Program-made: the position numbers and the translations under genes | Virus record (IMG/VR): IMGVR_UViG_3300032275_000001 | Span: 45,995 to 109,994 of that record | Direction: 5' to 3' (one strand) | Length of the DNA: 64,000 nucleotides | DNA from: a virus | Shown here: in pieces, positions 12,958-62,620 of the stretch | How positions within the stretch are numbered: the first letter of the stretch is position 1 | How the letters are laid out: every line of letters starts with the position of its first letter | The notes under the pieces: model-generated | What the model saw: the letters and a program-made list of their open reading frames with translations, nothing else | What the model was told of the DNA's origin: nothing | The model's database searches: none

Positions 12958-14157
12958 ATGACAGTACTATTAACATTAACAACTGCTGGATCTGATACAG
13001 GTTCATTTGATCTATATTCTAATTTAGATTATGCTATTCCTTTTGAAACAGGAGTTGGTAAAGCTACATTAGAAGCAGGGTATTCAACAGAGGTTCCAGA
13101 TGGTGCAACTATTGTTAGAATTACATCTACAGGAGATTGTATTAATTCTGTAGATATAACATTAAGATTAGCTGAATGTGATTTAGATGGATATGTAGAA
13201 CAATTAACCACTACAACAACAACAACTATATGTATTCCCCAAACAATATATGCTGGAGAAACATATTATAAATCAGGAAATACAGCACTAGAGTCTGGAT
13301 TAAGAGTAAATAATTATGCTTCTTTTTATCCTAATGGAACTAAAGTATTTTTTACACAACATAATAATGGTTTAGCAGGAGGAAATCCTACAGGTATATA
13401 TGATCCAATTATATCATATGATTTAGCAACTCCATGGGATGTATCCTCTATCATTAAAACTGGAGAGTTACAGTCTTCTAATTCGCCTAATCAATGGTTT
13501 AGTACTCCAGCAGTTACGTCAAACTTAACAACATCTTATGGATCACCACTTGAAAACTTTACAGCAGGGCATACCTTTTCAGAAGATGGTACTAAATTAT
13601 TTACAGCTGGAAAAGATAAAGGATTGCTACAAAAATATACTTTAGGTACTGCTTGGGATATTACTACAATGATTTTTGATTCTTCTACATTAGAATATGT
13701 AGTAATTACAGGAGATAGTTTAACAGCAGTTAAATTTAGTAGTGATGGTTTAATTATGATATTGCTTGGAAATAGTATTACAGCAAGATATGAATTAGTT
13801 TCTCCTTGGGACATAATTGGTGCAACATTGATATTTACTTCTACTGGTAATTCTAGTGATATTGATTTTCAAAATGGTGGTTTATATTTATTTACATTTA
13901 GTGGATCTAATTTAGTTAGAAAAACTTTAGGAAGTCCATATGATATAACAACTATAATTGAAACTCAAACACTAATTACTACAGTAATTCCTCAAGCAAT
14001 ATCTCCAAGAATAGTATTTAAAGATGGATTTAAAGGATACATAAGTACATTTAATAGTTTAGAACCTAGTATAATTTCTGCATTTGAGTTAACATGTGAG
14101 TTTGATATTAGTGGTACTATTCCAACAACAACTACTACTACAACATTACTACTATAA
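12958..14157 (+). CDS. Thr-linked virion protein with beta-propeller-like repeats
   Basis: The 399-residue product opens with the same domain as the gene before it (TVLLTLTTAGSDTGSFDLYS, VPDGATIVRITSTGDC), then a poly-Thr linker at about 84-91 (TTTTTTTIC). Residues ~95-385 contain repeated units of the type FSEDGTKLFTAGKDKG...YTLGTAWDITT, FSSDGLIMILLG...YELVSPWDI and FQNGGLYLFTFSG...LGSPYDITT, which I recognise as blades of a beta-propeller found in marine phage tail proteins (pattern: FSpDGtKlyv ... Y.LstpWDist). It ends in another Thr tract (TTTTTTTLLL). Probably a surface-exposed adhesin or decoration module. The strong terminator at 14189 ends this unit. Confidence 0.65.
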   Translation: MTVLLTLTTAGSDTGSFDLYSNLDYAIPFETGVGKATLEAGYSTEVPDGATIVRITSTGDCINSVDITLRLAECDLDGYVEQLTTTTTTTICIPQTIYAGETYYKSGNTALESGLRVNNYASFYPNGTKVFFTQHNNGLAGGNPTGIYDPIISYDLATPWDVSSIIKTGELQSSNSPNQWFSTPAVTSNLTTSYGSPLENFTAGHTFSEDGTKLFTAGKDKGLLQKYTLGTAWDITTMIFDSSTLEYVVITGDSLTAVKFSSDGLIMILLGNSITARYELVSPWDIIGATLIFTSTGNSSDIDFQNGGLYLFTFSGSNLVRKTLGSPYDITTIIETQTLITTVIPQAISPRIVFKDGFKGYISTFNSLEPSIISAFELTCEFDISGTIPTTTTTTTLLL

Positions 14158-20900: not shown

Positions 20901-23206
20901 GTAGATGTGCTACTCCTGCAAGAGAACAAGATATAACTGTTGTTTCTTATTATGCTTCATTAAAAAATACATTTGTAAATCAATATGGACAGATGTATTC
21001 TTATGATACAATTGATACAGGATTCCAAAGAAGTGTAACAGCTAATACTTCTGCTACAATATTTGGAGGAGATACATTTATATCTAGGTTTGCATTTAAA
21101 ACTAAGCTTCCTTTCTTTATAGACAATAGAGTTAATGCTCCTGATGATAGTGATATATTCTATGATGAGATTGGTAACATAGCTTATCCAAAATATTGGC
21201 ACTCAGCTAGATCTATTCTATCAGATTATACAGCTAAATCAGGCACACTATCTAATGTAATTTCATACAAAGCTCATGAGTTTGATTGTCCTAATGATCA
21301 ACGTCTAGTACCATCAACAGCTAAATCAGATACTAATCCTAATAGAACATTCTATGATGGATATTTTTATTTGTTTGCATATGGTATTCCTAACTTCTAT
21401 TGTGAGAGTTCTTATAACACAGACCTAAGACAAGCATTCAATAACAAAGAAGGGGACTTCTGGCCACATGTATCAACAGGTATTCCTGATGATTGGATGC
21501 AAGAAGATTTTGTATCAATAGCAAATGATAATACATATACATATAATGTAACATTCTCTAAACAAAATAAAGAAAATACATTTACGCATTTACCAGCAGA
21601 TTATAATGGAAATCCATGTTATACATACTACCCATTTAGAGCTGTATACTCAGATGCACAAAACACTGATGCTGACAATAGAGTGAATAGTTGGTTAACA
21701 TACAGAGCTATTTCTTATTATGACTTTCCTCAGAACTATGGTAAACTTATATCATTAGATGGTATTCAAAACAAAGCTGTATTAGCTAGGTTTGAAAACA
21801 AAACATTAATGTATAACAACCTCCTTACAATTGATACAAGTAATCCACAAGCTGCATATGTAGGTAATCCTAATATGTTCAAAGGAGCACCTCCTATTGA
21901 CTTTGCAGAAACAGATCTTGGATACGTAGGTAGTCAAAACAAAATGTTATTAAAGATTCCTCAAGGGCAAATTACAGTTGATGCAAAAAGAGGACAAGTG
22001 TTTCTTATACAAGGAACACAAGTAGAAGACTTATCTGCATTTGGTTCTGGAATGAATAGATTCTTTACAGACCATTTAGCTTTTGAAATACTTAGATATT
22101 TTCCAAAAGTAGATACAGATAACAATTTTAATGGTATAGGATTACATGGTGTATATGATAGTAAGTTTGATAGAGTTATACTTACTAAATTAGATTATAT
22201 TCCATTGAGTAATAATATTAAATATGATCCTACAACAAGAGATTTCTACATAGAAGAATCTTTAGGAAATAATATTTTATTTAAAACAATAGTAAGTTTA
22301 AAAGATTCAGATTATTTCTGTAATAAATCTTGGACTCTTTCATTTAATGTAAATACTAAAAGTTGGGTAAGCTTTCATAGTTATATTCCTAATTGGTATA
22401 TAGCAGAAAACAATTTCTTTTATTCTGGTATAAATGGGTGTTGTGATGAGTTTGATTTTGTTGCAGGAGAATTAGTTCCTACACCAAGTACCACTACTAC
22501 TAGTAGCAGCACATCTACAACCACTACTACATCAACAACACAAGTACCATTAGATTGTACATTAGAAGGAGAAGTAACATTAACTAATTGTGAATTAGAA
22601 GGAACAGGTGTAATCACTATACCTCCTATACCACCACCATGTCAAAGACCTATGAATTTACCAGTATTTGAATTTATAACAGGATATAATATAATATATC
22701 CTCCTTCAACAGTTGTATCTACAGGAAGTCAAGCAGATGCTTGTGACTCTATGAACTACTACAATGAAATTTTTGGACTAGATCCAAATGTAGAATTTAA
22801 TGATATTTTAGCAGAAGTTGTAAATATTGAAATTAATCAAACTGTATATGATGGTACAACAGGTACAGATTGTACATTGATACCTGATGGTTGGTATTAT
22901 ACAGATGAGACAGCAGGTAGTAGTAATGTATTCAGTGTAGTTAATGGTATAATAACTGAAATAGTTAATTGTCCTTCAGATACAACAACAACAACTACTA
23001 CATCACCAAATTGTTTCTCATTTACAGTGCGTAAATCAACACCAGGTACTGTAGCAGTAACTTATATTGATTGTTCAGGAGAACCAGCAAGTGTGAATAT
23101 TGGTAACCCATCACCAGGTGGACCTACTGAAACAACATTCTGTGCACGTAATGGAAGTATAGTTGTACCTGCTGAGGTAACATTAAGTAATAATGGATCT
23201 TGTTAA
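17927..23206 (+). CDS. Tail muzzle/stabilisation protein with added C-terminal modules
   Basis: The 1,759-residue product starts NIKQELNSANIGLNLDSTLN and LTYALNAALENFD, the opening I associate with the crAss-like stabilisation (muzzle) protein that forms the distal tail. The body to ~1,515 is beta-rich with many Tyr/Asn residues and scattered Cys. A Ser/Thr linker at ~1,522-1,540 (TTTSSSTSTTTTTSTTQ) then leads to extra modules: a small domain, a CQRP...GTDCTLIPDGWYY domain (~1,571-1,683) related to one in the protein at 8579, a second Thr tract (~1,686-1,692) and a final beta domain (CFSFTVRKSTPGTVAVTY). The body is probably ancestral and the Thr-joined part added later to expose binding domains at the tail tip. 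Confidence 0.75.
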   Translation: MAEEQSQGNIKQELNSANIGLNLDSTLNQIKQGTLTYALNAALENFDSSSVNYQNEQGNEFCVKFPEEYVLIGTHFINEQSKHIFFITNPNTGDSEIGYMDNNDCIYRKLVNAPCLNFNVDHPIHKAVHKITNCTTEIYWTDGFNPRRYLDLNDIPYILKSESPLCDPKYTDELDCNQLKLQPNFNIPNLAIADITTGGSLLAGTYQFAAQYSDAVGNPFTSYYSITNPTPIADPQIATVNFNYVVGKSIVVDVSNLDSSGQFQYFNLAVIKTVNAITSVELIGTYFIDNTSLNITYTGQINDNIRLSMNDVFEKFPYYDVAEDLTAVQDVLVWDGLTSIDRINYQSIATQIDLLWETYQIPSNENYADELNATNLRGYLRDEVYAFEIVFLLKNGKQTDGFHIPGRTLTIQEQSLPNIHITNNDFIGEPEPDTDYSPYWKIYNTASVIGNATGDKIGNATPYEYGNFAYWESTEKYPCNIDLWGALADQPIRHHKFPDVLVSPITRPAVIYDPAKGLARQNNYVYPIGVKIDTAQVYDLIDTSNLTSDQKADIVGYKIVRGDRGTNKSIVAKGILRNVGEYTREEQPFYFPNYPYNDITEDPFLNANNNAWSDLCERFIINVLKLPSKTTLGVPCLTIRYVSCNSNKESTEEFTTTGIHYICSIGKPTITSPGVTNTIDYSRGCNPVPNISDSNCIGTVSYADYDVYKIRSGNHCEWPGLQCSGWGAEWDDPISGPGAYVWMKPGNSYCIRVKKDQKPYRVSGSSKCGCNDISLQSTVRDTSCGAVAPLTPISNNPSSTYRQIFNSPETSFGQPFLGDILKLENVMFGAGKAHFVPVKSNAKYRLLSKEAQEDALASSNRLAAYTSPFNSTAMWTAYQAYLQIYINGITRRNYAYSFNSTASYDYNAIITNSGDKQRTLDIKRYLIPGVQNVGDDRNVNNYQRESSVYLKTDEYREDGTTSVAPLPFPSNSTEMASIGIKDRSRLTIGGSGRCATPAREQDITVVSYYASLKNTFVNQYGQMYSYDTIDTGFQRSVTANTSATIFGGDTFISRFAFKTKLPFFIDNRVNAPDDSDIFYDEIGNIAYPKYWHSARSILSDYTAKSGTLSNVISYKAHEFDCPNDQRLVPSTAKSDTNPNRTFYDGYFYLFAYGIPNFYCESSYNTDLRQAFNNKEGDFWPHVSTGIPDDWMQEDFVSIANDNTYTYNVTFSKQNKENTFTHLPADYNGNPCYTYYPFRAVYSDAQNTDADNRVNSWLTYRAISYYDFPQNYGKLISLDGIQNKAVLARFENKTLMYNNLLTIDTSNPQAAYVGNPNMFKGAPPIDFAETDLGYVGSQNKMLLKIPQGQITVDAKRGQVFLIQGTQVEDLSAFGSGMNRFFTDHLAFEILRYFPKVDTDNNFNGIGLHGVYDSKFDRVILTKLDYIPLSNNIKYDPTTRDFYIEESLGNNILFKTIVSLKDSDYFCNKSWTLSFNVNTKSWVSFHSYIPNWYIAENNFFYSGINGCCDEFDFVAGELVPTPSTTTTSSSTSTTTTTSTTQVPLDCTLEGEVTLTNCELEGTGVITIPPIPPPCQRPMNLPVFEFITGYNIIYPPSTVVSTGSQADACDSMNYYNEIFGLDPNVEFNDILAEVVNIEINQTVYDGTTGTDCTLIPDGWYYTDETAGSSNVFSVVNGIITEIVNCPSDTTTTTTTSPNCFSFTVRKSTPGTVAVTYIDCSGEPASVNIGNPSPGGPTETTFCARNGSIVVPAEVTLSNNGSC

Positions 23207-51967: not shown

Positions 51968-53653
51968 ATGAATCAATTTTGTGAAGCTATACCATGTCCT
52001 GTTATACTAAATTCTACCTGCGTATTCTACGAAGGAGCTAGTTTAGTATGTTCAGGAATCAATACTAATGATACCCTTGAGACTGTCATAGTTAAGTTAA
52101 ATCAAAAACTATGTAATGTTAGTGGAACATCTGGTACAAGTGGCACTAGTGGGACCAGTGGTACAGCAGGTACAAGTGGTCAAAATGGAGATAGATATAG
52201 AACAACTAGTACTGATGAATTTACATTAGGACAAGGAGGATCATTAAATGTTGATACATTCTTATCATACACTCCTGGACAATCTATTGTTATATCACAC
52301 AATGCATATAACTATCAAGAATGTATTGTTATTAATTATGATCCTTTAACAGGCATATTAAACTTTGAGTCTCCTACACAAGTTATTGGATCAGGAACAT
52401 TTGACTATTGGGATATAAACCTTGATGGTTCAACAGGTGGTGATGGATCTTCAGGAAGCTCTGGATCTTCTGGCACAACAGGTACCTCAGGAACATCAGG
52501 AACAAGAGGAACTTCTGGAAGCAGTGGTTCATCAGGTGTTAACGGAACTAGTGGAACTAGTGGTAGTAGTGGAAGTAGTAGTACGTCTGGTACTGCTGGT
52601 ACAAGTGGTACATCAGGAAATAATGGATTGGGTGGTAGCAGTGGTACATCTGGGACTAGTGGAACAAATGGAGCCAATGGTATAAATGGAACAAGTGGTA
52701 CTACAGGTACATCAGGTACTAGCGGAACAAGTGGTAACACTGGTTTAAATGGTAGTAATGGAACTTCTGGTACATCAGGCACAACAGGAACTAGTGGTAG
52801 TGATGGAAGTTCAGGCACATCGGGCACTACAGGAACTTCTGGTACTAGTGGTAGTTCAGGAACAAGCGGTACTTCAGGCAATGATGGTTCTTCTGGAACT
52901 AGTGGAACGTCAGGAACTAGTGCTACGTCTGGAACAAGTGGTACTAGTGGTGTAAATGGTATATCATCAGGACAGGTTTATTATTTTAATGAATCTATCA
53001 ATCAAACACCATATAAAGAATTTTCACCTATACCAACAAGTGAAATTCAACAAACTATAACTGCTACTATTGCAAATGGTGTAACATCAACTATTCAATC
53101 ATATTTAACACCTTCAACTTATCCGAATGTTTCAGTAATACCATTAGGTGTATGGTCATTCTACTTACACGCATATAAACAAAATAATAATGCAAGTTTT
53201 GATATATTCTGTGAAGTTTATAAAAGAACAACAGGAGGAGTTGAAACTTTATTATTTTCAACTGACCCATCACCTGTAACATCAAATTCACCAAATCCAT
53301 CAATGATATTATCTGATGGATTTCAGGCAGGATTTTCAATAAATACAACAGATAGAATATTAGTTAAAGTTAGAGCAACTAATACATCAAACCAATCACA
53401 TACAATTACCTTTGTTACTGAAGGAACAACTTATTATTCTTTTGCTCAAACAACATTAGGTGTAGTTAATAGTTCATCTGGTACTAGTGGATCTTCAGGA
53501 ACTTCTGGTAGTAATGGTTCAAGTGGAAGTAATGGTAGTTCTGGAACAAATGGAAGTAATGGATCTTCAGGTACTAGTGGAACAGCAGGAAACAATGATG
53601 GAAACTCAGATTATTTACTTATGGTAAGTTTTAGAACATTATATAATTATTAA
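51968..53653 (+). CDS. Collagen-like fibre protein (Gly-Thr-Ser repeats)
   Basis: The 561-residue product opens with the shared fibre anchor (CEAIPCPVILNSTCVFYEGA, then GINTNDTLETVIVKLNQKL). Gly-X-Y repeats follow: a short run at ~52-70, a long run at ~154-333 dominated by GTS, GSS and GTT triplets, and another at ~502-545. Between the last two is a beta-rich domain (about 340-500, EFSPIPTSEIQQTITATIAN). The repeats should form a trimeric collagen-like triple helix; phages use such rods in fibres. Almost every X or Y position is Thr or Ser, leaving many possible O-glycosylation sites. Frame-shifted long open frames on both strands over the repeats are by-products of the low complexity. Confidence 0.82.
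   Translation: MNQFCEAIPCPVILNSTCVFYEGASLVCSGINTNDTLETVIVKLNQKLCNVSGTSGTSGTSGTSGTAGTSGQNGDRYRTTSTDEFTLGQGGSLNVDTFLSYTPGQSIVISHNAYNYQECIVINYDPLTGILNFESPTQVIGSGTFDYWDINLDGSTGGDGSSGSSGSSGTTGTSGTSGTRGTSGSSGSSGVNGTSGTSGSSGSSSTSGTAGTSGTSGNNGLGGSSGTSGTSGTNGANGINGTSGTTGTSGTSGTSGNTGLNGSNGTSGTSGTTGTSGSDGSSGTSGTTGTSGTSGSSGTSGTSGNDGSSGTSGTSGTSATSGTSGTSGVNGISSGQVYYFNESINQTPYKEFSPIPTSEIQQTITATIANGVTSTIQSYLTPSTYPNVSVIPLGVWSFYLHAYKQNNNASFDIFCEVYKRTTGGVETLLFSTDPSPVTSNSPNPSMILSDGFQAGFSINTTDRILVKVRATNTSNQSHTITFVTEGTTYYSFAQTTLGVVNSSSGTSGSSGTSGSNGSSGSNGSSGTNGSNGSSGTSGTAGNNDGNSDYLLMVSFRTLYNY
52428..52966 (+). repeat. Collagen-like Gly-X-Y coding repeat
   Basis: About 180 codons of GGN-ACN-AGT/TCN triplet repeats, without an exact DNA unit longer than a few codons. 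Shorter runs of the same type lie near 52121-52183 and 53471-53600 in the same gene. Recombination between runs could change rod length. Confidence 0.85.
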
Positions 53654-53666
53654 AAATAAATAAATT

Positions 53667-54116
53667 ATGGCATTGACGAATGGACAAATACCAGTATTAG
53701 CAAACGTACCAAATAGTGGTGTTGCGGTAATAACTGGAACAACAATTGGAACTTTAGGTTCTGATACAAATGGTGTAGTAGTATATACTGCAGGTAGTTT
53801 AGGTGGTAGAATATATTCACTTACAGCAGTTACAAGCTCAACAGTAATTGTAAATACATATGTATATATATTAAGAGGATCAACAGTTATTCCATTGGGA
53901 TTAGTTAGTATTCCTTTATCATCAGGTAATACATTGGCAGTAAAATTTAATGTTGATTATCTTGATGGTGTAAATATATTAGGATTACCATTAGATAATA
54001 CTGGTAAAAGATATATTCCTCTTCAAGGTGGTGATAAATTAAAACTAACTACTATTATCAATATAGCAGCAGGATCTGCTTGGGTTACTGCTCATGGTGC
54101 TGATTATCAAGCATAA
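53667..54116 (+). CDS. Small beta-rich structural protein
   Basis: The 149-residue product (LTNGQIPVLANVPNSGVAVI, then GSDTNGVVVYTAGSLGGRIY and YIPLQGGDKLKLTT) is a chain of short strands with Gly/Thr/Val turns and no helices, typical of a small beta-barrel or fibre-tip domain. Similar proteins accompany fibre genes in Bacteroidota phages. It lies 13 bases after the collagen-like gene. It may be a fibre tip, a decoration protein or a chaperone; nothing in the sequence decides. Confidence 0.5.
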   Translation: MALTNGQIPVLANVPNSGVAVITGTTIGTLGSDTNGVVVYTAGSLGGRIYSLTAVTSSTVIVNTYVYILRGSTVIPLGLVSIPLSSGNTLAVKFNVDYLDGVNILGLPLDNTGKRYIPLQGGDKLKLTTIINIAAGSAWVTAHGADYQA

Positions 54117-54130
54117 AATAATAACTATAT

Positions 54131-55204
54131 ATGACTGGTATTGAAAATGGTTTAGTAAATGGTGTATATGATAATTCATTAAATGGGTTATGTGGAGGAC
54201 TTATGGGACAACATCAACAAATAAGTGAAGTAAATACATTTATCTTTACTATTAAAACAACTTCAACAAAAACTATTGTTCTTCCACTTATGTCAACTGG
54301 AACTTATAATTTCTGGGTTGATTGGGGTGATGGTATTAAAGATTTTGTAAGAACCTACGGTCAAATATACTCAGGCGAAACTGTTGCAAGAACACATACT
54401 TACCCGACTGCGTTAAGAAACTATACCATAAAAATAACTGGAGTATGCCGTGGATGGTCGTATTTCGGATTAACGCTTGAACAAACTAAAATATTGACAA
54501 TAGAAAGATTTGGGTGTTTGGAATTAATTAGCGATGCCAATGGGCAACAATTTGCGGGTTGTAGTATTTTAGATTTATCAAATGTTAAAGATACACCAAG
54601 ATTAAATTATATAACTCAACTTGTCCAAACATTTCAATATTGTAGTAAATTAAAAATTAATTTACTTAATAATTGGGATGTTAGTAAAATATTTAGTCTT
54701 TCAACAACATTCAATGGGTGTTCCGTGCTTAATGAAGATATTGGTAATTGGAACGTGAGTACTGTATCGAATATGGGAGGATTATTTGCAGATGCAGTAT
54801 TATTTAACAGAGATATTAGTAATTGGAACGTGAGTAACGTGACATTTATGCAAGCAACATTCTCAAACGCTGCGTCCTTTAACCAATCTATCGGGTCGTG
54901 GGATGTTAGTAAAGTAACGAGTATGAATGGTATGTTTAGTAACGCCGCTGCTTTCGACCAAAACATAGGAAATTGGAACGTAAGTATATGTACTAATTTT
55001 GGAAGTTTTATGTCAACAAAAACACCTGCAACATTTTCAGCAGCTAATTTAGATGCTATTTATAATGGTTGGAGTAGTAGACCATCAAATTCAAATTTAA
55101 GTATTTCTTTTGGTACTGCAAATTATACAATAGCAGGTGGTAGTGCAGGCAGATCGATTTTAGTAAGTCGTGGATGGACAATAGTTGACGGAGGAGGAAT
55201 TTAA
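54131..55204 (+). CDS. DUF285/BspA-type repeat surface protein
   Basis: The 357-residue product has a short N-terminus, a PKD-like strand region (YNFWVDWGDGIKDFV) and then at least four ~25-residue repeats: NNWDVSKIFSLSTTF, IGNWNVSTVSNMGGLF, ISNWNVSNVTFMQATF, IGSWDVSKVTSMNGMF and IGNWNVSICTNFGSF. This (F)N.(D/S)I..W(N/D)VS.VT.M..MF unit is the DUF285 (BspA-like) leucine-rich-type repeat of bacterial surface proteins and some phages. A C-terminal strand region ends VDGGGI. The repeat block uses more G and C (AACGTGAGTAACGTGAC, ATCGGGTCGTGG) than the rest of the window, a sign of recent transfer. Likely receptor-binding or adhesion protein. Confidence 0.78.
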   Translation: MTGIENGLVNGVYDNSLNGLCGGLMGQHQQISEVNTFIFTIKTTSTKTIVLPLMSTGTYNFWVDWGDGIKDFVRTYGQIYSGETVARTHTYPTALRNYTIKITGVCRGWSYFGLTLEQTKILTIERFGCLELISDANGQQFAGCSILDLSNVKDTPRLNYITQLVQTFQYCSKLKINLLNNWDVSKIFSLSTTFNGCSVLNEDIGNWNVSTVSNMGGLFADAVLFNRDISNWNVSNVTFMQATFSNAASFNQSIGSWDVSKVTSMNGMFSNAAAFDQNIGNWNVSICTNFGSFMSTKTPATFSAANLDAIYNGWSSRPSNSNLSISFGTANYTIAGGSAGRSILVSRGWTIVDGGGI

Positions 55205-55215
55205 AAACAAATAAT

Positions 55216-55410
55216 ATGAACAATTTTTATTTAGCACATAACGAGATAGATGTATTTCATTATGGTAGTATTCAAGAAGGTCAAACTGTAACAACAGGAC
55301 AACCGTTCCTTGAATATTTTGAAACAGAACAAGGTTTAATTGACAGAGTGCTTGAGTTAGATCAAGAATATATAAGTACATCACCAATTATTAATCAATC
55401 ACAAATATGA
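55216..55410 (+). CDS. Small acidic protein of unknown function
   Basis: The 64-residue product (NNFYLAHNEIDVFHYGSIQE, then TTGQPFLEYFETEQGLIDRV) is acidic and has no membrane segment. I know similar small proteins placed after tail-fibre genes in phages of Bacteroidota, but no function. Its stop overlaps the start of the holin-like gene (ATGA), so the two are probably co-translated. Confidence 0.55.
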   Translation: MNNFYLAHNEIDVFHYGSIQEGQTVTTGQPFLEYFETEQGLIDRVLELDQEYISTSPIINQSQI

Positions 55411-55670
55411 ATAAATTTATAGAAGAAAGATGGTACATGCATCTAATAGGTGGGGCTATTACAGTAACACCAATTATTTGGTTGTTGATTAAATTTGATC
55501 CTTCCTTTGATATAGGTAAAATTGCTCAAGTATTTATTGCTGGGTTATTTGCTTATTTTATAGGATTTACATGGGAATGGTACAATGGAAAATACCACGA
55601 AGCACCTTTTGATTGGAATGATATAGCATTTACAATGCTAGGAGCAATTATAGGAACAATATTATTATAA
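55407..55670 (+). CDS. Three-helix membrane protein, holin-like
   Basis: The 87-residue product has three likely membrane segments: about 11-28 (HLIGGAITVTPIIWLLI), 40-58 (AQVFIAGLFAYFIGFTWEW) and 70-87 (IAFTMLGAIIGTILL), with a charged N-terminus (NKFIEERW). The size and helix count fit class I holins. It lies 5 kb from the endolysin, on the other side of the minus-strand gene, so a different membrane role is possible. A terminator overlaps its stop codon. Confidence 0.5.
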   Translation: MNKFIEERWYMHLIGGAITVTPIIWLLIKFDPSFDIGKIAQVFIAGLFAYFIGFTWEWYNGKYHEAPFDWNDIAFTMLGAIIGTILL

Positions 55671-55820: not shown

Positions 55821-55844
55821 AAACCCTCTATACGAGGGTTTTTA
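55821..55844. terminator. Bidirectional terminator between convergent genes
   Basis: AAACCCTC (55821-55828) pairs with GAGGGTTT (55834-55841) around a 5-base loop; T-rich bases follow on the plus strand (TTTATTATTT) and T/A-rich bases on the minus strand. It overlaps the stop codon of the minus-strand glycosyltransferase gene and should stop transcription from both sides. Confidence 0.82.
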
Positions 55845-58806
55845 TTATTTCTATTACCATGTTTGGTGTCACACTATTCTGACATTCAAACTGTCTCTCT
55901 GTGCCTTCATGCAATGGACACCAGTTCCAATTTGATTTATCAAACTTATATTCTGGTTTATTCCAACATCCATGGCATACATTTGTATTGATTGGTCTAT
56001 GACATGTAAACTCATGATCTTTATCAGTGAAATTACTGATCATTATCACTGGTACATCTAATCCCCAGGCCAACCAACTGAGACCTGAACTTAAACCTAT
56101 AAAGAATTCACTTTGTGCTATCCATTTTATCGTACTCTCAACTGATTTATCAAGTAATGGATCACAGTTGTCAAATGGATTGTTTTCTAGTGATACATTC
56201 TTCACTGTATACTCTTGATCATGTAGATAGTTAATTACTTCTTGCCAAGCTTCTCTGGGCCAGAACTTACAGCCTGATGTACTATTTGTAGCTATTGTAA
56301 CTAGTTTATGATTTACTTTAAGTCCTGAGTTATGTACACTAGGTTTGATTTCTATATAATCAAGACCTAGAATGTTTGTAGCTGTCTTTTGTAAAGGAAT
56401 TGTATTAGGAAGAACAGGTTCTTTATTATCATTATAGAACCAACCTAACTTATACATTGCATACAGATTGTTAAATACATATCCTGGTTCCACAAACTCA
56501 AGCTCTGTATAAGTGTCAAGTATATTGTTCCAAAAACTTGACACAATCACATGGCAATTGTGTTTCTTTTTAAACTCAAGAGCGTACGGTATCCAAGCTA
56601 ATGTATCTCCTAATGAAAAACTATCAAAAGCAATGTACACTCTCTTGTCTGTCAAATCTATTATCTTATTGTACACTTCCACACCATCCTTGTACACTAT
56701 AGTTTGCCATGTAGTAAAGTATTCTCTGTTAAGTTTTATCCAATGATTGCACTTTATTGTATCATAATGAACTAACTTTTGTGTTTCTACATCATGAAAC
56801 TCTACATCAAATGTACTATCACTGGTTCCTGTTATTTCAAGGAATGGTTGTCCAACAAAATTTTGTATGATATTATAATCATTTACAGGCTTTTTGTTTG
56901 GAATAACGGACATTGCTTTCTCATATAATGACATGTGATCTTTAGCAAAATCATCAGTTGTATTATTAGTTAGTATATGATAATTTGTATGATCTGTTAA
57001 CATATCTTCTACTTGACGTTTTAGTTTTTTAGGATCTAGAGTTGTAATATATCTAGTAAACATATTTTTATATTGAGGAAGATCTCTAGCAATAATTTTT
57101 TTACCAAAACTAATAGCTTCTCTTAATACTAATGGATTACATTCCCATGTAGAGTTAAACATAACTATATCAGCAGCCATTATAAAATATTTAGCATCAT
57201 CTCGTTCTCCCCATATCTTTACATTATCTGGAACATCATTCATAAGTGGTTCCCAATAGTCTTGAAAGTTACCAGCTTGATTACCTATAAAATGAAATCC
57301 TACATCTGGCATTTGTTTAGCTAATTCAAGCATCTCACCTTGGTTCTTTCCAGGAGTCCATAAACCAACATTTACAACATGTTTCATTTTAAGATTCATA
57401 CCAAGAGCTATCTTAGCTTCATAACAATCATCTTCTGAAACTCTATAGTTATCAATAGGAAACTCAATCACTTCTTTATAATATCCTTCTACATTAGCAA
57501 ATGTATCTAAGTGATAAGGAGTGCAGAAAGCGTATGCATCAGGTGTAAATATCTTATTAGCAGGATTAAAAGAAACATCATGGCAAGTCTCAACTATCCT
57601 ATATTTCCTATCAGGAGAGTAAAGTCTTCTTACCATTTTAGGATCTAGTCTTTCAGACATCTCATCTATGTGTATAATGTCTGGTTTAAACTCATCTACA
57701 GCCTTGAAGATTCTCATCTTATCTTCATTTAATGTATATAAGCCTGTAAGCTTTATAATTTCATCTCTCTGTACAACATAATCTTTGCTGTAACATTGAT
57801 ATTCTACCACTTGAATTGATACATTTGGCAGAGTTTGCAACGCTTGTATTCTCTTAAGAAGGAATGCTGGCATACCACCTGTAGATAGGTGAGGAGCAAG
57901 GAATAGGATTTTTAGTTTAGACATTGGTTTAAATATTTTAGACATTATTTTAGACATTTGAACTGGATCTTTCTCTCCATGTAGGAATAGTAATTGTTCT
58001 TTACACTCTGGTAACCTGAACCAACTCTCAACATGTTTGCCCCAGTTATCTTCATTGTATATCCTATCTAGCTTATCAAGACCAGTGTTAGTGTATATAT
58101 AAGGAAGACCTTGATGTATATTATATTTCCACAATAGCACATTTACTATTGTTTCTTCGTGATAGGGAGCATAGATTTGTGGATTATTAAGAACAATAGG
58201 ATGCGTGCACATCCAATACCACTCATCTAGAAATGATATAGTGTTCTTACCAGCTACAAAGTAACCAGTTTGTCTATATCTTTCTCTTACATATTGATTT
58301 ACATTGAATAAGTCACATGCTGGATGTTCTAGTGTTGTAGAGAGATCATCTTTGCTATCAGCTCCTCCTCTTCCATTAATATGTAGATAGTCATATATAC
58401 CTTCTACAAAATATGGATGTCCACATTCAGTGTTATACATATCAAATATACTATCTATGTATTGTGTAGCAATTGAATCAGAATCTACATAACATATTGT
58501 ATCAGCAAAGTTCTCAAGAGCATGCTTAACTACAAGAGGTCTTTGAATTAATAACTTGTATACATTAGGATTGTTTCTGTCTATATAATCAGCTTTGACT
58601 GAATAGTCAACATCACATTCCCAATAGACAGTGTTAGCTCCAGGAACCTCTCTGTGATCATCTAGCATATACACTGTGATTGGTATATTGCTAAACTGTT
58701 GAATGCTCTCTACAGCCATACATACAGTGCTGTAATAAGATGCGTTTGCATATAAAACATACATTTTATCTGCTTTTATATGTTCATACGTATAACTATC
58801 GGACAT
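55828..58806 (-). CDS. Three-module glycosyltransferase (GT-A, GT4-like, O-heptosyltransferase-like)
   Basis: Start chosen at the ATG at 58806 (SDSYTYEHIKADKMYVLYAN); the frame extends to a TTG at 58827 that overlaps a -7 promoter element. The 992-residue chain holds three transferases. Residues ~15-290: GT-A type with DSD at 108-110 (CYVDSDSIATQYID). Residues ~296-640: GT-B, GT4-like (LAPHLSTGGMPAFLLKR, NVGLWTPGKNQGE, and the ECNPLVLREA donor-site loop). Residues ~645-992: closely resembles autotransporter strand-loop-strand O-heptosyltransferases of the TibC/BAHT family (AFDSFSLGDTLAWIPYALEF) including a Cys metal finger (CHGCW, NWNWC, FEC) near the end. These enzymes glycosylate Ser/Thr of surface proteins. 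It is the only minus-strand gene in the window. Confidence 0.82.
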   Translation of the reverse strand: MSDSYTYEHIKADKMYVLYANASYYSTVCMAVESIQQFSNIPITVYMLDDHREVPGANTVYWECDVDYSVKADYIDRNNPNVYKLLIQRPLVVKHALENFADTICYVDSDSIATQYIDSIFDMYNTECGHPYFVEGIYDYLHINGRGGADSKDDLSTTLEHPACDLFNVNQYVRERYRQTGYFVAGKNTISFLDEWYWMCTHPIVLNNPQIYAPYHEETIVNVLLWKYNIHQGLPYIYTNTGLDKLDRIYNEDNWGKHVESWFRLPECKEQLLFLHGEKDPVQMSKIMSKIFKPMSKLKILFLAPHLSTGGMPAFLLKRIQALQTLPNVSIQVVEYQCYSKDYVVQRDEIIKLTGLYTLNEDKMRIFKAVDEFKPDIIHIDEMSERLDPKMVRRLYSPDRKYRIVETCHDVSFNPANKIFTPDAYAFCTPYHLDTFANVEGYYKEVIEFPIDNYRVSEDDCYEAKIALGMNLKMKHVVNVGLWTPGKNQGEMLELAKQMPDVGFHFIGNQAGNFQDYWEPLMNDVPDNVKIWGERDDAKYFIMAADIVMFNSTWECNPLVLREAISFGKKIIARDLPQYKNMFTRYITTLDPKKLKRQVEDMLTDHTNYHILTNNTTDDFAKDHMSLYEKAMSVIPNKKPVNDYNIIQNFVGQPFLEITGTSDSTFDVEFHDVETQKLVHYDTIKCNHWIKLNREYFTTWQTIVYKDGVEVYNKIIDLTDKRVYIAFDSFSLGDTLAWIPYALEFKKKHNCHVIVSSFWNNILDTYTELEFVEPGYVFNNLYAMYKLGWFYNDNKEPVLPNTIPLQKTATNILGLDYIEIKPSVHNSGLKVNHKLVTIATNSTSGCKFWPREAWQEVINYLHDQEYTVKNVSLENNPFDNCDPLLDKSVESTIKWIAQSEFFIGLSSGLSWLAWGLDVPVIMISNFTDKDHEFTCHRPINTNVCHGCWNKPEYKFDKSNWNWCPLHEGTERQFECQNSVTPNMVIEIIKTLV

Positions 58807-58824
58807 AGGTTTGATTTTTAAAAA

Positions 58825-58832
58825 CAAAGATA
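58825..58832 (-). promoter_or_regulatory. Possible -7 element of glycosyltransferase gene
   Basis: Minus strand reads TATCTTTG, a match to TAnnTTTG, 18 bases before the ATG at 58806. No TTTG is found 19-21 bases upstream, so only half of the promoter is convincing. Confidence 0.4.
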
Positions 58833-58852
58833 TAAAAATATATTTAGCTTAT

Positions 58853-58862
58853 GCTATATTAT
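58853..58862 (+). promoter_or_regulatory. GCTATATTAT upstream motif, copy 3
   Basis: Exact copy of the 10-mer at 1671 and 51887; with copy 1 it shares ATGCTATATTAT. It begins 32 bases before the -33-like element at 58885 in the divergent region between the glycosyltransferase and the lysis genes. Confidence 0.5.
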
Positions 58863-58884
58863 GAAGGAAATCTCATCAGACCAT

Positions 58885-58915
58885 TTTATTATATGGAATA
58901 TATGATTTATATTTG
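58885..58915 (+). promoter_or_regulatory. Bacteroidota-type promoter for lysis module
   Basis: TTTA at 58885-58888 (one mismatch to TTTG), 19-base spacer, TATATTTG at 58908-58915 (full match). The ATG of the first lysis gene follows at 58997 after an ~75-base leader. Confidence 0.6.
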
Positions 58916-58996
58916 TTATAAAATATCATAATTATTATTTGCATACAATTAACTTTTCAAATTGTATATATGTTATAACAATCCCACCTTACCATT

Positions 58997-59320
58997 ATGG
59001 AAAAATTAATTGAAAAACAAATAGAAAAAGAATTAAAAAGCATGGACCAACGCCTATATGATCTAGAGGAGAAAATGACTTCAATAGATACGAAATTGAC
59101 ACAAGTTGTGGACGCTATATTAGGAAACGCATTAACTAAAGCAGGAGGATTTGTTGCTGATATAACAGAGCTTAAAGCTAAAATAAAAACACTAGAAGCT
59201 AAACTGGAAAAACAAGAAACTTTTAAAAACAAGGTGTTATGGACAGTAGGTGTAATGGTAGCCATGGGTGTTGTGTTACAATATGTAGCAAGTATTTATT
59301 ACAATATAACAAGAATATGA
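58997..59320 (+). CDS. Coiled-coil membrane-anchored lysis-module protein
   Basis: The 107-residue product is a long charged coiled coil (IEKQIEKELKSMDQRLYDLE, then ELKAKIKTLEAKLEKQE) with one membrane helix near the C-terminus (VLWTVGVMVAMGVVLQYVAS). Proteins of this shape occur in phage lysis cassettes as holin or spanin-like parts. The next gene starts inside its stop (ATGATG around 59317-59322), so translation is coupled. Confidence 0.6.
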   Translation: MEKLIEKQIEKELKSMDQRLYDLEEKMTSIDTKLTQVVDAILGNALTKAGGFVADITELKAKIKTLEAKLEKQETFKNKVLWTVGVMVAMGVVLQYVASIYYNITRI

Positions 59321-59928
59321 TGTTTATAAAAAAGAACTACTTATACTTAATCATAGGTGTCTTACTTCTTGTAATACTGTTACAGAGATGTACATCTGGT
59401 GAACCCATTAAGCCTGTACCACCAACTGTCAAAATAGACACTGTATGGGTGAAACATGATAGTATTATATATTCTAAACCTAAGATAATTACAGTTATTA
59501 AAGGAGTTCCTGAGATACAATATGTACCAGATACATCTTATTCAAAACTTGTTATACAATACAAAAGCTTAGTTGATCTGTGTACAGCAAAGAATGTATA
59601 CTCAGATACATTGAAAATAGATTCTATTGGATATGTAAATGTTTTAGATACGATTTCAAAAAACAGGATACAAGGAAGAAGATTTAAGTATGACTTAAAG
59701 TATCCTGTAATTACTAAGACAATCACTCTTCAAGCACCTCCTAAAACACAAGTATATATAGGTGGAGGATTGCAAGGAAATCAATACAACATAGTTAATC
59801 AGTTTAGTGCAGGCCTACTGCTCAAGACTAAGAAAGATCAAATCTATGGAGTGTATACAGGAATGAATACAGATGGAAAAGTACAATATGGCTTACAAAG
59901 CTATTGGAAAATAAAATTAGGTAAGTGA
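59317..59928 (+). CDS. Spanin-like protein with N-terminal membrane anchor
   Basis: Start chosen at ATG 59317, overlapping the previous stop; a longer frame from 59239 reads an out-of-frame part of the earlier gene. The 203-residue product has a membrane anchor (KNYLYLIIGVLLLVILLQRC) followed by a Pro-rich segment (EPIKPVPPTVKIDTVWVK) and a long beta-rich periplasmic region ending in Gly/Tyr strands (GGGLQGNQYNIVNQFSAGLL, GKVQYGLQSYWKIKLGK). The Cys directly after the hydrophobic stretch could be a lipid site, though the preceding residues (LQR) are not a good lipobox. Position in the lysis block suggests an envelope-spanning role; the C-terminal strands resemble outer-membrane-facing segments. 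Confidence 0.5.
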   Translation: MMFIKKNYLYLIIGVLLLVILLQRCTSGEPIKPVPPTVKIDTVWVKHDSIIYSKPKIITVIKGVPEIQYVPDTSYSKLVIQYKSLVDLCTAKNVYSDTLKIDSIGYVNVLDTISKNRIQGRRFKYDLKYPVITKTITLQAPPKTQVYIGGGLQGNQYNIVNQFSAGLLLKTKKDQIYGVYTGMNTDGKVQYGLQSYWKIKLGK

Positions 59929-60188
59929 TAAGACTATTTAAATACATAGAACCATTATGGTTAGGGACCAACAGTAAGATATCTATACGCAAAATCTTAT
60001 CGTTGGCTTTTTCTATTGATTTAATACGCAACATATCATATACAATACATAACTGGGAAATAGGTAAATCATATTCTGATGTAGCTATGTTACTAGGACT
60101 AGAGGCTGCTCTTATAGCTGCTCTACTATCACTCACCACATATTCAACTATGGTGGCAAATAAAAAATCAAATACAGAAATAGACTAA
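59925..60188 (+). CDS. Small membrane protein, holin candidate
   Basis: The start is GTG at 59925, overlapping the previous TGA (GTGA). The 87-residue product has an amphipathic start, one clear helix (VAMLLGLEAALIAALLSLTT, ~52-72) and a weaker one (~25-42). It ends in a charged tail, and its TAA stop (60186-60188) touches the endolysin ATG (60188). Immediate linkage to the endolysin makes it the best holin candidate in the window. Confidence 0.6.
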   Translation: MIRLFKYIEPLWLGTNSKISIRKILSLAFSIDLIRNISYTIHNWEIGKSYSDVAMLLGLEAALIAALLSLTTYSTMVANKKSNTEID

Positions 60189-60604
60189 TGGTAACAAGTG
60201 CACAAGCTTTAAAGAAATACGGAGACCCAACTAAAGAATCTGGTATGACATTATGGGATGTACCAAAAGAATTAGAAATAGGCGTTCTACCTAAGAGATT
60301 ATATTGTAACAAAGATATGATCCTACCACTAACCAAAGCTTTTAAAAATCTCATATCTACAGGATGTGTTAAGGAATTAAAAACTTGGGATGGGTGTTTC
60401 AACATTCGTAAGAAAAGAGGACTTGCATCAATGTCTTTACATTCATGGGGAATAGCCATTGATGTAAACGCTGCATGGAATGGTTTAAACAAAGAACCAC
60501 AACTAAGTAAAGAGTTTGTTAATTGTTTTACATTAGCAGGATTTGATTGGGGAGGAATCTGGACAAGAAAAGATGGAATGCACTTCCAATTAAAAACTAT
60601 ATAA
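60188..60604 (+). CDS. M15-family peptidase endolysin
   Basis: The 138-residue product has the zinc site of M15 (VanY/D,D-carboxypeptidase-like) enzymes: SLHSWGIAIDVN with H85 and D92, and WTRKDGMHFQ with D129 and H132, which matches the usual HxxxxxxD...ExxH arrangement with Asp in the general-base place. The compact size with no signal peptide or wall-binding domain fits a phage endolysin that cuts peptidoglycan stem or cross-link peptides and leaves the cell through a holin. It sits directly after the holin candidate. Confidence 0.9.
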   Translation: MVTSAQALKKYGDPTKESGMTLWDVPKELEIGVLPKRLYCNKDMILPLTKAFKNLISTGCVKELKTWDGCFNIRKKRGLASMSLHSWGIAIDVNAAWNGLNKEPQLSKEFVNCFTLAGFDWGGIWTRKDGMHFQLKTI

Positions 60605-60607
60605 ACC

Positions 60608-60745
60608 ATGGCAAAACAAACCAATACAGTACAGAAGAGAGTGAAGGTTAAAGTGAGTAGACCAGGCATTCATTCTAAAAACAAAACATCAAAACTTAAA
60701 TCTTCCAAGAATTACAAAAAAAGTTATTCTGGGCAAGGTAGATAA
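60608..60745 (+). CDS. 45-residue basic conserved small protein
   Basis: ATG at 60608 three bases after the endolysin stop, TAA at 60743. The peptide is very basic (AKQTNTVQKRVKVKVSRPGI, then SKLKSSKNYKKSYSGQGR). I recognise the ending KTSKLKSSKNYKK..GQGR from small genes next to lysis or tail genes in Bacteroidota phages; function unknown. The charge suggests nucleic-acid binding. Confidence 0.65.
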   Translation: MAKQTNTVQKRVKVKVSRPGIHSKNKTSKLKSSKNYKKSYSGQGR

Positions 60746-60800
60746 CTTTTTTGATTATTTTAATTCATTAACAATTATGTATGTTTACATAAATTATTTA

Positions 60801-60808
60801 TATTTTTG
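60801..60808 (+). promoter_or_regulatory. Possible -7 element
   Basis: TATTTTTG matches TAnnTTTG, 25 bases before the ATG at 60833, but no TTTG lies 19-21 bases upstream. Weak promoter candidate for the small Thr-tailed gene and second glycosyltransferase. Confidence 0.35.
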
Positions 60809-60832
60809 TAACTACCAAACAAACAATCAATT

Positions 60833-60973
60833 ATGGCAATACCAGCTAAACAAGTCGGCCAATCAGCAGAAGCAAATCTTTTGTGGCAAATATCTAAGCA
60901 GTTGGAACTTTTAATTAAAGTGACAGCAGCTAACAATCCTACTACCACTACCACTACCACTCCTGCCCCTTAA
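60833..60973 (+). CDS. 46-residue protein with poly-Thr tail
   Basis: ATG at 60833, TAA at 60971. A short amphipathic helix (AEANLLWQISKQLELLIKVT) is followed by AANNPTTTTTTTPAP. The Thr tail is coded by ACT/ACC repeats like the linkers in the virion proteins. It lies 33 bases before the second glycosyltransferase gene. It could be a small virion component or a substrate of that enzyme; only the sequence similarity of the tail is seen. Confidence 0.6.
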   Translation: MAIPAKQVGQSAEANLLWQISKQLELLIKVTAANNPTTTTTTTPAP

Positions 60974-61006
60974 TTGCAAAATTAAAACATAATAAACCAA
61001 CTACAT

Positions 61007-62023
61007 ATGAAAGATTTAAAATTTGTGCAAGCTTGCCCAAGTGATGTATATTATACATGGCAAGTTCATTTATGGCTTGAAAGCTTAAGAAACATTGGAC
61101 ATAGTGATAAAGCTATATCAGTGATATTCACACCTAAGGGAAGAGAGAATAGAGACAAATGGAAACAGATAGAAGACCTCTATCCAGAATCAGAGTTTCA
61201 TTATTACAATGATGAAGACAATTTAAATCAACTACTAGGGATATATATCCCTGTACTAAGACCATATGTACTTTGGAAACATTTCAAAGCTAATCCAGAA
61301 CTAAGTGAGAAAGCAATATTCTATTGTGATTCAGATATTCTGTTCACTAAAGATTTCAATGTAGATGAGTTCTTAGATGATGATGTTAACTACCTATCAG
61401 ATACAAACAGCTACATCAATGCTACATATTTTGATAGTAAAATAAGAGATGTTCTCTCAGAGAAGCTAGAAGCATACAAAACAAGAGATGTTCTTGGAGA
61501 AATAGCTAGTGTTATTGGTATAGATAGAGCAACATGTGAAGCTAACAACCTACACTCAGGAGGAGCACAATATCTACTAAAGAATGTAGATGGTGAGTTC
61601 TGGAGTAAGGTGATGAATGATTGCATTCTTATTAGAACCTATTTACAAACAGTGAATAGAGAATATTTTAAAGATGAGAATACAGGATATCAATCATGGT
61701 GTGCAGATATGTGGGCTGTTCTTTGGAACTTATGGTTTAGAGAACAAGAAACAAAAGTGGTTCCTGAACTAGCATTCACCTGGGCAACAGATCCTATATC
61801 TAAACTAGACAGTCATACAATCTTTCATAATGCAGGAATAACAGGAGTATCAATGAATGGATATCCTTGTTTCTACAAAGGAAAATATCATCAAGGAACT
61901 GACCCTACAAAAGATCCACACTTAGATGATGTATTAAATAACACAGAATCACAGAAGTATTGCACATGGTTCTATGCAAATGAACTAAATAACATAAAAA
62001 ATAAATATAACCTTAATTATTAA
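61007..62023 (+). CDS. GT-A type glycosyltransferase
   Basis: The 338-residue product carries a nucleotide-sugar binding DSD motif (FYCDSDILFTKDF, D108-D110) after an alpha/beta N-terminus (KFVQACPSDVYYTWQVHLWL) and later NLHSGGAQYLLKNVDGEFW and FHNAGITGVS elements that fit a GT8- or GT-A-like fold. The donor and acceptor are unknown. It shows the same general plan as the first module of the minus-strand glycosyltransferase. Neighbouring genes encode Thr-tailed small proteins, so modification of phage proteins is one possibility; modification of host surface glycans or phage DNA are others. Confidence 0.75.
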   Translation: MKDLKFVQACPSDVYYTWQVHLWLESLRNIGHSDKAISVIFTPKGRENRDKWKQIEDLYPESEFHYYNDEDNLNQLLGIYIPVLRPYVLWKHFKANPELSEKAIFYCDSDILFTKDFNVDEFLDDDVNYLSDTNSYINATYFDSKIRDVLSEKLEAYKTRDVLGEIASVIGIDRATCEANNLHSGGAQYLLKNVDGEFWSKVMNDCILIRTYLQTVNREYFKDENTGYQSWCADMWAVLWNLWFREQETKVVPELAFTWATDPISKLDSHTIFHNAGITGVSMNGYPCFYKGKYHQGTDPTKDPHLDDVLNNTESQKYCTWFYANELNNIKNKYNLNY

Positions 62024-62028
62024 ATATC

Positions 62029-62433
62029 ATGAACAAACGTGACTTAAAAGCGTATTCACGCTTCGATGGAACTGGTAGAATTGTACCAGGAAGTACTGTA
62101 CTTAGACGTCAAAAACCTAAAGTGGGAAATTGGAAAGAAGTTCCAGCATATGAATGCTGTAATGATGTAACATTAACATTTACACCTTCTTCTCCAATAA
62201 TTAGCGATGTAACATTAAGACTTTTTTGTAATGGTACACAGATAAATTATTTGTATACACCAAGTGATTCTACTACTATTGAATCATTAGTTAATATATT
62301 AAATAATACATTTAATGTATTAGGAACATTTACAAATCCTAGTGGAAACATTATCCAACTAGTAATGAGTGGTGCACAAAAAACTGCACTATGTCCTGTA
62401 GGAACATTAACATTTGATGTTATTGCTGACTAA
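62029..62433 (+). CDS. Small protein with basic head and beta domain
   Basis: The 134-residue product starts NKRDLKAYSRFDGTGRIVPG, then RRQKPKVGNWKEVPAYECCN, followed by a beta domain (VTLTFTPSSPIISDVTLRLF to TLTFDVIAD). Its first 45 residues are closely copied in the next gene (62447). The head resembles short virion or capsid-associated proteins in Bacteroidota phages. Role unknown. Confidence 0.6.
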   Translation: MNKRDLKAYSRFDGTGRIVPGSTVLRRQKPKVGNWKEVPAYECCNDVTLTFTPSSPIISDVTLRLFCNGTQINYLYTPSDSTTIESLVNILNNTFNVLGTFTNPSGNIIQLVMSGAQKTALCPVGTLTFDVIAD

Positions 62434-62446
62434 TTAAAAAAATAGG

Positions 62447-62620
62447 ATGAACAGTAGACCTTTAAAAGCTTATGTAAGATTTGATGGATCTGGACGTGTA
62501 GTCTCAGGTAGTCTTATATTGCGCAAAAACAAACCAAAGGTGGGTAAGTGGCAAGAGATTACAGCATATCAGTGTTGTAATCCAACCACTAGTACAACTA
62601 CAACATCACCAACACCTTAA
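62447..62620 (+). CDS. 57-residue paralogue with poly-Thr tail
   Basis: ATG at 62447, TAA at 62618. The product NSRPLKAYVRFDGSGRVVSG, then RKNKPKVGKWQEITAYQCCN matches the head of the upstream 134-residue protein over ~45 residues, but the beta domain is replaced by PTTSTTTTSPTP. Tandem duplication followed by domain exchange at the CCN border is the simplest reading. Intact frame and normal spacing support a real gene. Confidence 0.7.
   Translation: MNSRPLKAYVRFDGSGRVVSGSLILRKNKPKVGKWQEITAYQCCNPTTSTTTTSPTP

What the first reader, a model, noticed from the sequence alone, without database searches (positions are those of the whole stretch)
55828..62620. Glycosyltransferases beside Thr-rich virion proteins: a possible mucin-like glycosylated phage surface
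At least seven proteins carry runs of Thr (7758-7812, 8870-8941, 9150-9180, 9690-9712, 10086-10112, 12546-12570, 13208-13230, 14125-14150, 22489-22545, 22980-23003, 60937-60965, 62583-62615), and a fibre has ~200 Gly-Thr/Ser triplets. The window also encodes a three-module glycosyltransferase whose last module resembles TibC/BAHT O-heptosyltransferases, known to modify Ser/Thr of autotransporter surface proteins, plus a second GT-A enzyme. Seen: tracts and motifs. Inferred: that these enzymes glycosylate the tracts, giving a heavily sugared linker layer that could stiffen linkers, hide from host proteases or bind mucus or host glycans.
Basis: partly seen in the sequence, partly recalled or inferred. 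Interest (0 to 1): 0.85.

Follow-up and report, generated by a model that had tools for sequence, protein, structure and literature searches.

The report
Phage fibre paired with sugar-adding enzyme

Summary
Seven proteins carry poly-Thr tracts, and the 999-aa minus-strand gene (55828-58827) is GT-A + GT4 + a TibC-type O-glycosyltransferase (TIGR04414, 254 bits, cut-off 200; predicted fold TM 0.8 to TibC). The proposed acceptor does not hold. Poly-Thr tracts occur in 28/28 related phages with or without the TibC module, and 0/50 viral contigs chosen for long poly-Thr encode it. The module instead tracks the nearby (Gly-Thr-Ser)n collagen-like fibre (51968-53653): all 16 TibC+ genomes of the group have it; all 9 TibC- genomes whose slot could be read lack it. 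In TibC loci with full flanks 19/20 have a convergent GTS gene within 10 kb; 18/50 contigs chosen for GTS carry the module. The nearest bacterial relatives also sit beside GTS-repeat proteins (8/11); autotransporter-type relatives do not (0/66). The GTS branch mostly lacks TibC's beta-hairpin thumb, and most viral members lack the adenine-contacting Arg286, but catalytic base and iron finger are kept. Best reading: a fibre-plus-glycosylase cassette that O-glycosylates Ser (perhaps Thr) of a proline-free collagen-like shaft. Glycosylation itself is inferred; the donor sugar is unknown.

The parts
55828..58827 (-). Three-module glycosyltransferase, 999 aa from TTG (or 991 aa from ATG at 58803): GT-A, GT4, TibC-like
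57928..58779 (-). GT-A-like module, residues 17-300; the swappable N-terminal part (present in 30 of 36 relatives; others lack it, and some add a methyltransferase in front)
   Evidence: Predicted structure; module presence; methyltransferase fusions
56878..57927 (-). GT4 (GT-B) module, residues 301-650
   Evidence: PF00534 5e-9; present in 36 of 36 relatives
55831..56877 (-). TibC/BAHT-like module with N-terminal beta-barrel, residues 651-999
   Evidence: TIGR04414 254 bits, cut-off 200; 4rap E 7e-43; Foldseek TMt 0.80-0.82
56605..56607 (-). Codon of Asp741, equivalent of TibC catalytic base Asp110; invariant in 105 of 105 viral rows
55882..55977 (-). Iron-finger Cys951, 954, 970, 982 (TibC Cys339/342/358/370)
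51968..53653 (+). Collagen-like fibre, 561 aa, proposed acceptor; Pfam Collagen 104 bits; no Pro in about 77 Gly-X-Y triplets
52124..52195 (+). First Gly-X-Y block of the fibre (aa 53-76)
52445..52966 (+). Main Gly-X-Y blocks of the fibre (aa 160-333)
53480..53596 (+). C-terminal Gly-X-Y block of the fibre (aa 505-543)
53667..55670 (+). Turnover genes between fibre and enzyme (53667, 54131 PARCEL-repeat, 55216, 55407); found in only 1-3 of 36 related cassettes
61007..62023 (+). Second GT-A enzyme, PHROG 4417 (unknown function), DxD motif, glycogenin/GT8-like predicted fold; core gene of the group, not tied to the GTS fibre
60833..60973 (+). 46-aa protein ending in a poly-Thr tail; its N-terminal part is shared by larger proteins in relatives
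62447..62620 (+). 57-aa protein ending in a Thr-rich tail; paralogue of 62029-62433
8579..10114 (+). Virion-region protein with five Thr-rich tracts between small domains
12958..14157 (+). Protein with two T7 tracts
17927..23206 (+). Large virion structural protein (PHROG 37948) with two Thr-rich tracts
6656..7825 (+). Protein with a C-terminal Thr-rich tail

Best explanation
The gene at 55828-58827 and the fibre gene at 51968-53653 form a mobile fibre-plus-glycosylase cassette. The TibC-like C-terminal module, acting in the infected cell's cytoplasm, transfers a sugar from a nucleotide-sugar to hydroxyl groups in the fibre's proline-free Gly-Thr-Ser repeats; Ser at the Y position is most likely, Thr possible. 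The fused GT4 and GT-A modules then extend that sugar; in relatives a fused methyltransferase would cap it. The result would be a densely O-glycosylated collagen-like shaft on the virion. Shown: enzyme family, kept catalytic residues, predicted fold, and association with GTS proteins in several distant genomic settings. Inferred: that the fibre is the acceptor, Ser as the site, the order of sugar addition, and that glycosylation stabilises or shields the shaft. Unknown: the donor sugar.
For: Family: TIGR04414 above cut-off; TibC E 7e-43; Foldseek TMt about 0.8, rmsd 2.8 A; D110, T226, K230, W305 and four iron-finger Cys kept. Association: 16/16 TibC+ genomes of the group have the GTS fibre and 0/9 TibC- genomes with a readable slot do (Fisher p 5e-7, not corrected for kinship). 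TibC-selected viral loci with full flanks: 19/20 have a GTS gene within 10 kb, in all 19 downstream and convergent. Capsid-centred control loci: 2/80. GTS-selected contigs: module over cut-off in 18/50; poly-Thr-selected: 0/50. Other cassette genes turn over (1-3 of 36) while fibre (30/36) and GT4+TibC (36/36) stay. Nearest bacterial relatives: 8/11 have GTS-repeat proteins nearby, several lipoprotein-like, against 0/66 of the autotransporter-type. Cyanophage Mel-JY01 has the module and GTS ORFs on both sides. Repeats have Ser at Y in 67-88% of triplets and mostly about 1% Pro, up to 4% in Mel-JY01; TibC sites mapped were Ser.
Against: No glycan has been observed. Adjacent genes can co-transfer without working together, and independent changes on the capsid tree are few (3 supported pairs, nearly always in concert, sign test p 0.25). 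GTS proteins also occur without a detected module (32/50 contigs; at least 5 of 18 of 60 kb or more), so the enzyme is not needed for every such protein, or another enzyme replaces it. Arg286, which contacts adenine in TibC, is Thr here and in most viral rows, and the thumb needed for the TibC dodecamer is missing, so donor and assembly may differ. Some module-bearing loci have other fibres nearby (L417, L430).
Confidence: 0.7

Rival explanations
1. One reading: the TibC-like enzyme, the second GT-A enzyme (61007-62023), or both, glycosylate the poly-Thr tracts, giving mucin-like linkers.
For: Poly-Thr tracts are real, strand-specific and universal in the group. The second GT-A gene is core and lies within 3 kb of a T6+ tract in 53/54 loci, with a GT8-like predicted fold.
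Against: TibC module and poly-Thr do not co-vary and 0/50 poly-Thr-selected contigs have the module over cut-off. Only 5/50 of them have a relative of the second GT-A. Mapped TibC sites were Ser, not Thr. About half of TibC loci have no T7 tract nearby.
Confidence: 0.15
2. The enzyme modifies the host surface (for example lipopolysaccharide core), to change a receptor or block superinfection, and lies beside the fibre because both belong to a host-interaction slot.
For: Phage glycosyltransferases that change host serotype are known (also noted in PMC12619734). GT4 and GT9 families include lipopolysaccharide enzymes. Some relatives carry HldE/HldD-like sugar genes.
Against: The family matched is protein O-glycosyltransferases with the iron finger, not WaaC-type (TibC 150 bits against 11 for WaaC). 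The partner is one repeat type across different phages and bacterial contigs.
Confidence: 0.1
3. Hitch-hiking: fibre and enzyme are swapped together as a diversity cassette with no enzyme-substrate relation.
For: The slot is hypervariable: empty, GTS + TibC, or a YadA-head-like fibre with sulfotransferase and GT9-like gene.
Against: Intervening genes turn over while fibre and enzyme stay. The pairing recurs with a different gene order in Gammaproteobacterial contigs and in Microcystis phage Mel-JY01. The repeat composition is similar in all.
Confidence: 0.1
4. The enzyme glycosylates phage DNA bases.
For: Many phage glycosyltransferases do so (established knowledge; noted in PMC12619734).
Against: The module belongs to a protein O-glycosyltransferase family and is tied to a structural repeat protein. 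Genes for modified bases were not specifically searched for.
Confidence: 0.03

Closest known systems
TibC / AAH bacterial autotransporter heptosyltransferases (BAHT, TIGR04414)
   Same: Fold, N-terminal beta-barrel, catalytic Asp110, Thr226, Lys230, Trp305, four-Cys iron finger
   Different: Fused to GT4 and GT-A; no beta-hairpin thumb; Arg286 replaced by Thr; partner is a Gly-Thr-Ser collagen-like protein, not a strand-loop-strand autotransporter
Mycobacteriophage virion glycosylation (Che8, Corndog, Myrna; Freeman et al. 2023, as cited in PMC12363180 and PMC12619734)
   Same: Phage-encoded glycosyltransferases that modify the phage's own virion proteins
   Different: Targets there are C-termini of capsid and tail tube proteins; here a collagen-like fibre is proposed, without chemical proof. 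No sequence comparison with those enzymes was made
Glycosylated bacterial collagen-like proteins (BclA of Bacillus) and mimivirus collagen
   Same: Gly-X-Y repeat protein with O-glycosylation; sugars thought to aid triple-helix hydration (PMC8968730)
   Different: Bacterial collagen-like repeats average 19-31% Pro at X (PMC8968730); here Pro is absent, and about 1% in relatives. The enzyme family is not known to be shared (not compared)
TibC module in Microcystis phage Mel-JY01 (WWT39291.1, annotated methyltransferase FkbM)
   Same: Same module at 37% identity, GTS ORFs nearby
   Different: Different phage and host; the GTS gene appears to be annotated on the wrong strand (WWT39287.1)

Membership tests
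BAHT (TIGR04414 hepto_Aah_TibC) | Score over curated family cut-off | tested here: met
   254.4 bits, cut-off 200, residues 670-997
BAHT (TIGR04414 hepto_Aah_TibC) | Catalytic base Asp110 and Thr226, Lys230, Trp305 | tested here: met
   D741, T850, K854, W918; Asp invariant in 105 viral rows
BAHT (TIGR04414 hepto_Aah_TibC) | Arg286, contact to adenine of ADP-heptose | tested here: not met
   Thr899 here; Thr in 89/105 viral rows, Arg in 65/66 autotransporter-type rows
BAHT (TIGR04414 hepto_Aah_TibC) | Four-Cys iron finger | tested here: met
   C951, C954, C970, C982
BAHT (TIGR04414 hepto_Aah_TibC) | Beta-hairpin thumb needed for the dodecamer | tested here: not met
   Segment of 17 aa against 27 in TibC; 17-18 aa in 94/105 viral rows, 27 in 63/66 autotransporter-type rows
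BAHT (TIGR04414 hepto_Aah_TibC) | N-terminal beta-barrel and GT-B fold | tested here: met
   Predicted model, strands 651-722; Foldseek TMt 0.80-0.82 over about 370 columns
BAHT (TIGR04414 hepto_Aah_TibC) | Acceptor is a strand-loop-strand autotransporter | tested here: not met
   No such gene seen near the enzyme in the window; partners of this branch are GTS proteins
BAHT (TIGR04414 hepto_Aah_TibC) | Donor ADP-heptose and Ser/Thr transferase activity | not testable with these tools
   Needs enzyme assay; heptose-like kinase and epimerase genes occur in a few relatives, no kinase in this record
Collagen-like proteins (PF01391) | Gly-X-Y repeat above Pfam cut-off | tested here: met
   104 bits, cut-off 27.2
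Collagen-like proteins (PF01391) | Proline in X/Y positions as in most known collagens | tested here: not met
   0 Pro in about 77 triplets; about 1% in relatives
Collagen-like proteins (PF01391) | Forms a triple helix | not testable with these tools
   Needs circular dichroism or a structure

The most novel reading that the evidence does not exclude
A widespread phage system in which a fused enzyme builds and caps an O-glycan on a proline-free (Gly-Thr-Ser)n collagen-like fibre, the sugars replacing proline/hydroxyproline as the stabiliser of the triple helix; fibre type and its modifying enzymes are exchanged together as a cassette, and a related two-gene version decorates lipoproteins in some Gammaproteobacteria.
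Probability: 0.35. Interest if true: 0.85.

Novelty: new variant of a known kind. Interest (0 to 1): 0.66.

Why it matters
It gives a specific, testable enzyme-substrate pair for O-glycosylation of phage fibres, in an abundant group of uncultured aquatic phages and in one cultured cyanophage. It would extend the TibC family from autotransporters to collagen-like shafts, suggest how Gly-Thr-Ser repeats without proline could form stable fibres, and supply a two-gene protein glycosylation tool. It also moves attention from the poly-Thr linkers to a better supported acceptor.

Tried and rejected
Poly-Thr as TibC acceptor: not supported by co-occurrence tests. PF00535 search of the record: no GT2. 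Full ADP-heptose pathway in the phage: no HldE-kinase-like gene in this record, and no GmhA in any of 50 records; kinase and epimerase hits in relatives are below family cut-offs. Paper searches for crAss-like threonine-rich proteins, for phage virion O-glycosylation in those words, and for a collagen/heptosyltransferase/phage link gave nothing on this pairing; the library is partial. An earlier count said 9/11 for bacterial GTS neighbours; the correct count is 8/11. The first run of the capsid-centred control used wrong ids and was repeated.
Full report
1. Observation. The window is the last 64 kb of a 109,994-base viral record. All twelve listed stretches encode Thr-rich runs in the gene's frame, in seven proteins. 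The (ACN)7 pattern is almost wholly on the coding strand in 28 related genomes (about 350 against 1; reversed control about 22), with mixed codons, so it is selected as protein. The fibre at 51968-53653 is real but has about 77 Gly-X-Y triplets, not 200, with no Pro.

2. The enzyme. The minus-strand gene 55828-58827 has a GT-A-like module, a GT4 module and a C-terminal GT9-type module. The last scores 254 bits against TIGR04414 (cut-off 200), matches solved TibC at E 7e-43, and the predicted model matches TibC with TMt 0.8 and rmsd 2.8 A. Using the residues named in PMC4358343, the catalytic base, Thr226, Lys230, Trp305 and the four iron-finger Cys are kept. Arg286 (adenine contact) is Thr, and the beta-hairpin thumb that joins the TibC dodecamer is missing. 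This is a property of the branch: the thumb segment is 17-18 aa in 94 of 105 viral rows and 27 aa in 63 of 66 autotransporter-type rows.

3. Which protein is the partner? In 28 records of the same group, poly-Thr is in all and the TibC module in 16. The Gly-Thr-Ser pattern is in all 16 module-bearing records and in 1 of 12 others. That one (G018) ends inside the fibre gene. Two others (G012, G015) appear to stop before the slot, judged from the position of the capsid gene. In the nine where the slot was read there is no GTS fibre. Fisher p is 5e-7 but ignores kinship. On the capsid-gene tree the label changes about five times; three independent supported pairs change together in nearly all pairings, too few for significance.

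4. Wider tests. I searched the viral collection with the module alone, with GTS alone, and with long poly-Thr alone. Module-selected loci with at least 9 kb on both sides have a GTS gene within 10 kb in 19 of 20 cases, in all 19 beyond the enzyme's 3' end and convergent with it. Capsid-centred loci of the group have one in 2 of 80. GTS-selected contigs carry the module over cut-off in 18 of 50, poly-Thr-selected in 0 of 50. For contigs of 60 kb or more: 12 of 18 over cut-off against 0 of 11, p 4e-4. Genes lying between fibre and enzyme in the window are found in only 1-3 of 36 related cassettes, while fibre (30) and GT4+TibC (36) stay.

5. Outside this phage group. The closest bacterial relatives (37-43% identity) have GTS-repeat proteins nearby in 8 of 11 loci, against 0 of 66 more distant ones, most of which lie by autotransporter-like genes. 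One of the 8 (L481) looks like a phage contig. In Gammaproteobacterial MAG contigs the partners are small proteins with a lipoprotein-like start and GSSGTSG repeats beside a stand-alone TibC-like gene. On the tree the autotransporter-type rows form one strongly supported group apart from the GTS-linked rows. Microcystis phage Mel-JY01 carries the module in a protein annotated as FkbM methyltransferase, with GTS ORFs on both sides. Two huge-phage records with the module have no GTS within 12 kb.

6. Mechanism. Repeats in all settings are mainly Gly-[Thr/Ser]-Ser with little Pro. Mapped TibC sites were Ser, not Thr, so Ser at Y is my best guess. The module would start the glycan, and GT4 and GT-A extend it. 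In relatives a methyltransferase (PF13489/PF08241 or FkbM) is fused in front, as expected for a cap. Donor: unknown. A few relatives carry genes whose best matches are heptose kinase and ADP-heptose epimerase, below cut-off; this record has no such kinase, and no GmhA was found. Sugars on collagen-like proteins are thought to aid hydration of the triple helix (PMC8968730); that they do so here is a hypothesis.

7. The slot. Between 45679-51882 and 58997-59320 the group shows three states: empty, GTS + TibC, or a YadA-head-like fibre with a sulfotransferase and a GT9-like gene. This suggests that fibre and modifying enzymes travel together, but it also leaves hitch-hiking open.

8. The second GT-A (61007-62023) is a core gene (about 80% identity in most relatives whichever slot state) with a glycogenin-like predicted fold (TM about 0.4-0.46, so class level only). 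It lies by poly-Thr genes in 53 of 54 loci. It remains a possible modifier of those tails.

9. Verdict. The enzyme is securely of TibC type; the GTS fibre is a well-supported but unproven acceptor; the poly-Thr idea is not supported for this enzyme. New variant of a known kind.

Noticed in passing
window 61007-62023: Core GT-A gene of unknown function (PHROG 4417) with a glycogenin-like predicted fold, beside poly-Thr genes in 53 of 54 related loci.
   Followed up: partly
L110 9060-12452, L120 8978-12731, L124 11615-15474, L417 10851-16943, L430 11504-13268: Alternative cassette in the same slot: sulfotransferase and GT9-like gene, in most cases beside a fibre of GGG-N-ASG repeats resembling YadA heads.
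   Followed up: partly
L417 7817-9787, L430 8150-10695: Phage genes whose best matches are ADP-heptose epimerase and heptose-7-phosphate kinase, with a nucleotidylyltransferase-like gene, beside a TibC module.
   Followed up: partly
L672 2-3049 (PP395634.1): GenBank CDS WWT39287.1 (739-2298, minus) lies antisense to a 1016-codon GTS-repeat ORF on the plus strand: probably a wrong-strand annotation.
   Followed up: yes
window poly-Thr tracts: ACC makes up 17 of 104 Thr codons in the tracts but 4 of 274 elsewhere in the same genes; cause unknown.
   Followed up: no
window 8579-10114 and 17927-23206: A similar CQRP...DAC...GTDCTLI domain occurs in two structural proteins, each copy bounded by Thr tracts: possible domain shuffling at linkers (by eye).
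   Followed up: no
window 54131-55204: PARCEL-repeat protein in the cassette (TIGR02167), rare in relatives.
   Followed up: no
window 3069-4631 and 17927-23206: Closest named relative is Leptolyngbya phage Lbo-JY46, a cyanobacterial phage, then Cellulophaga phages.
   Followed up: no
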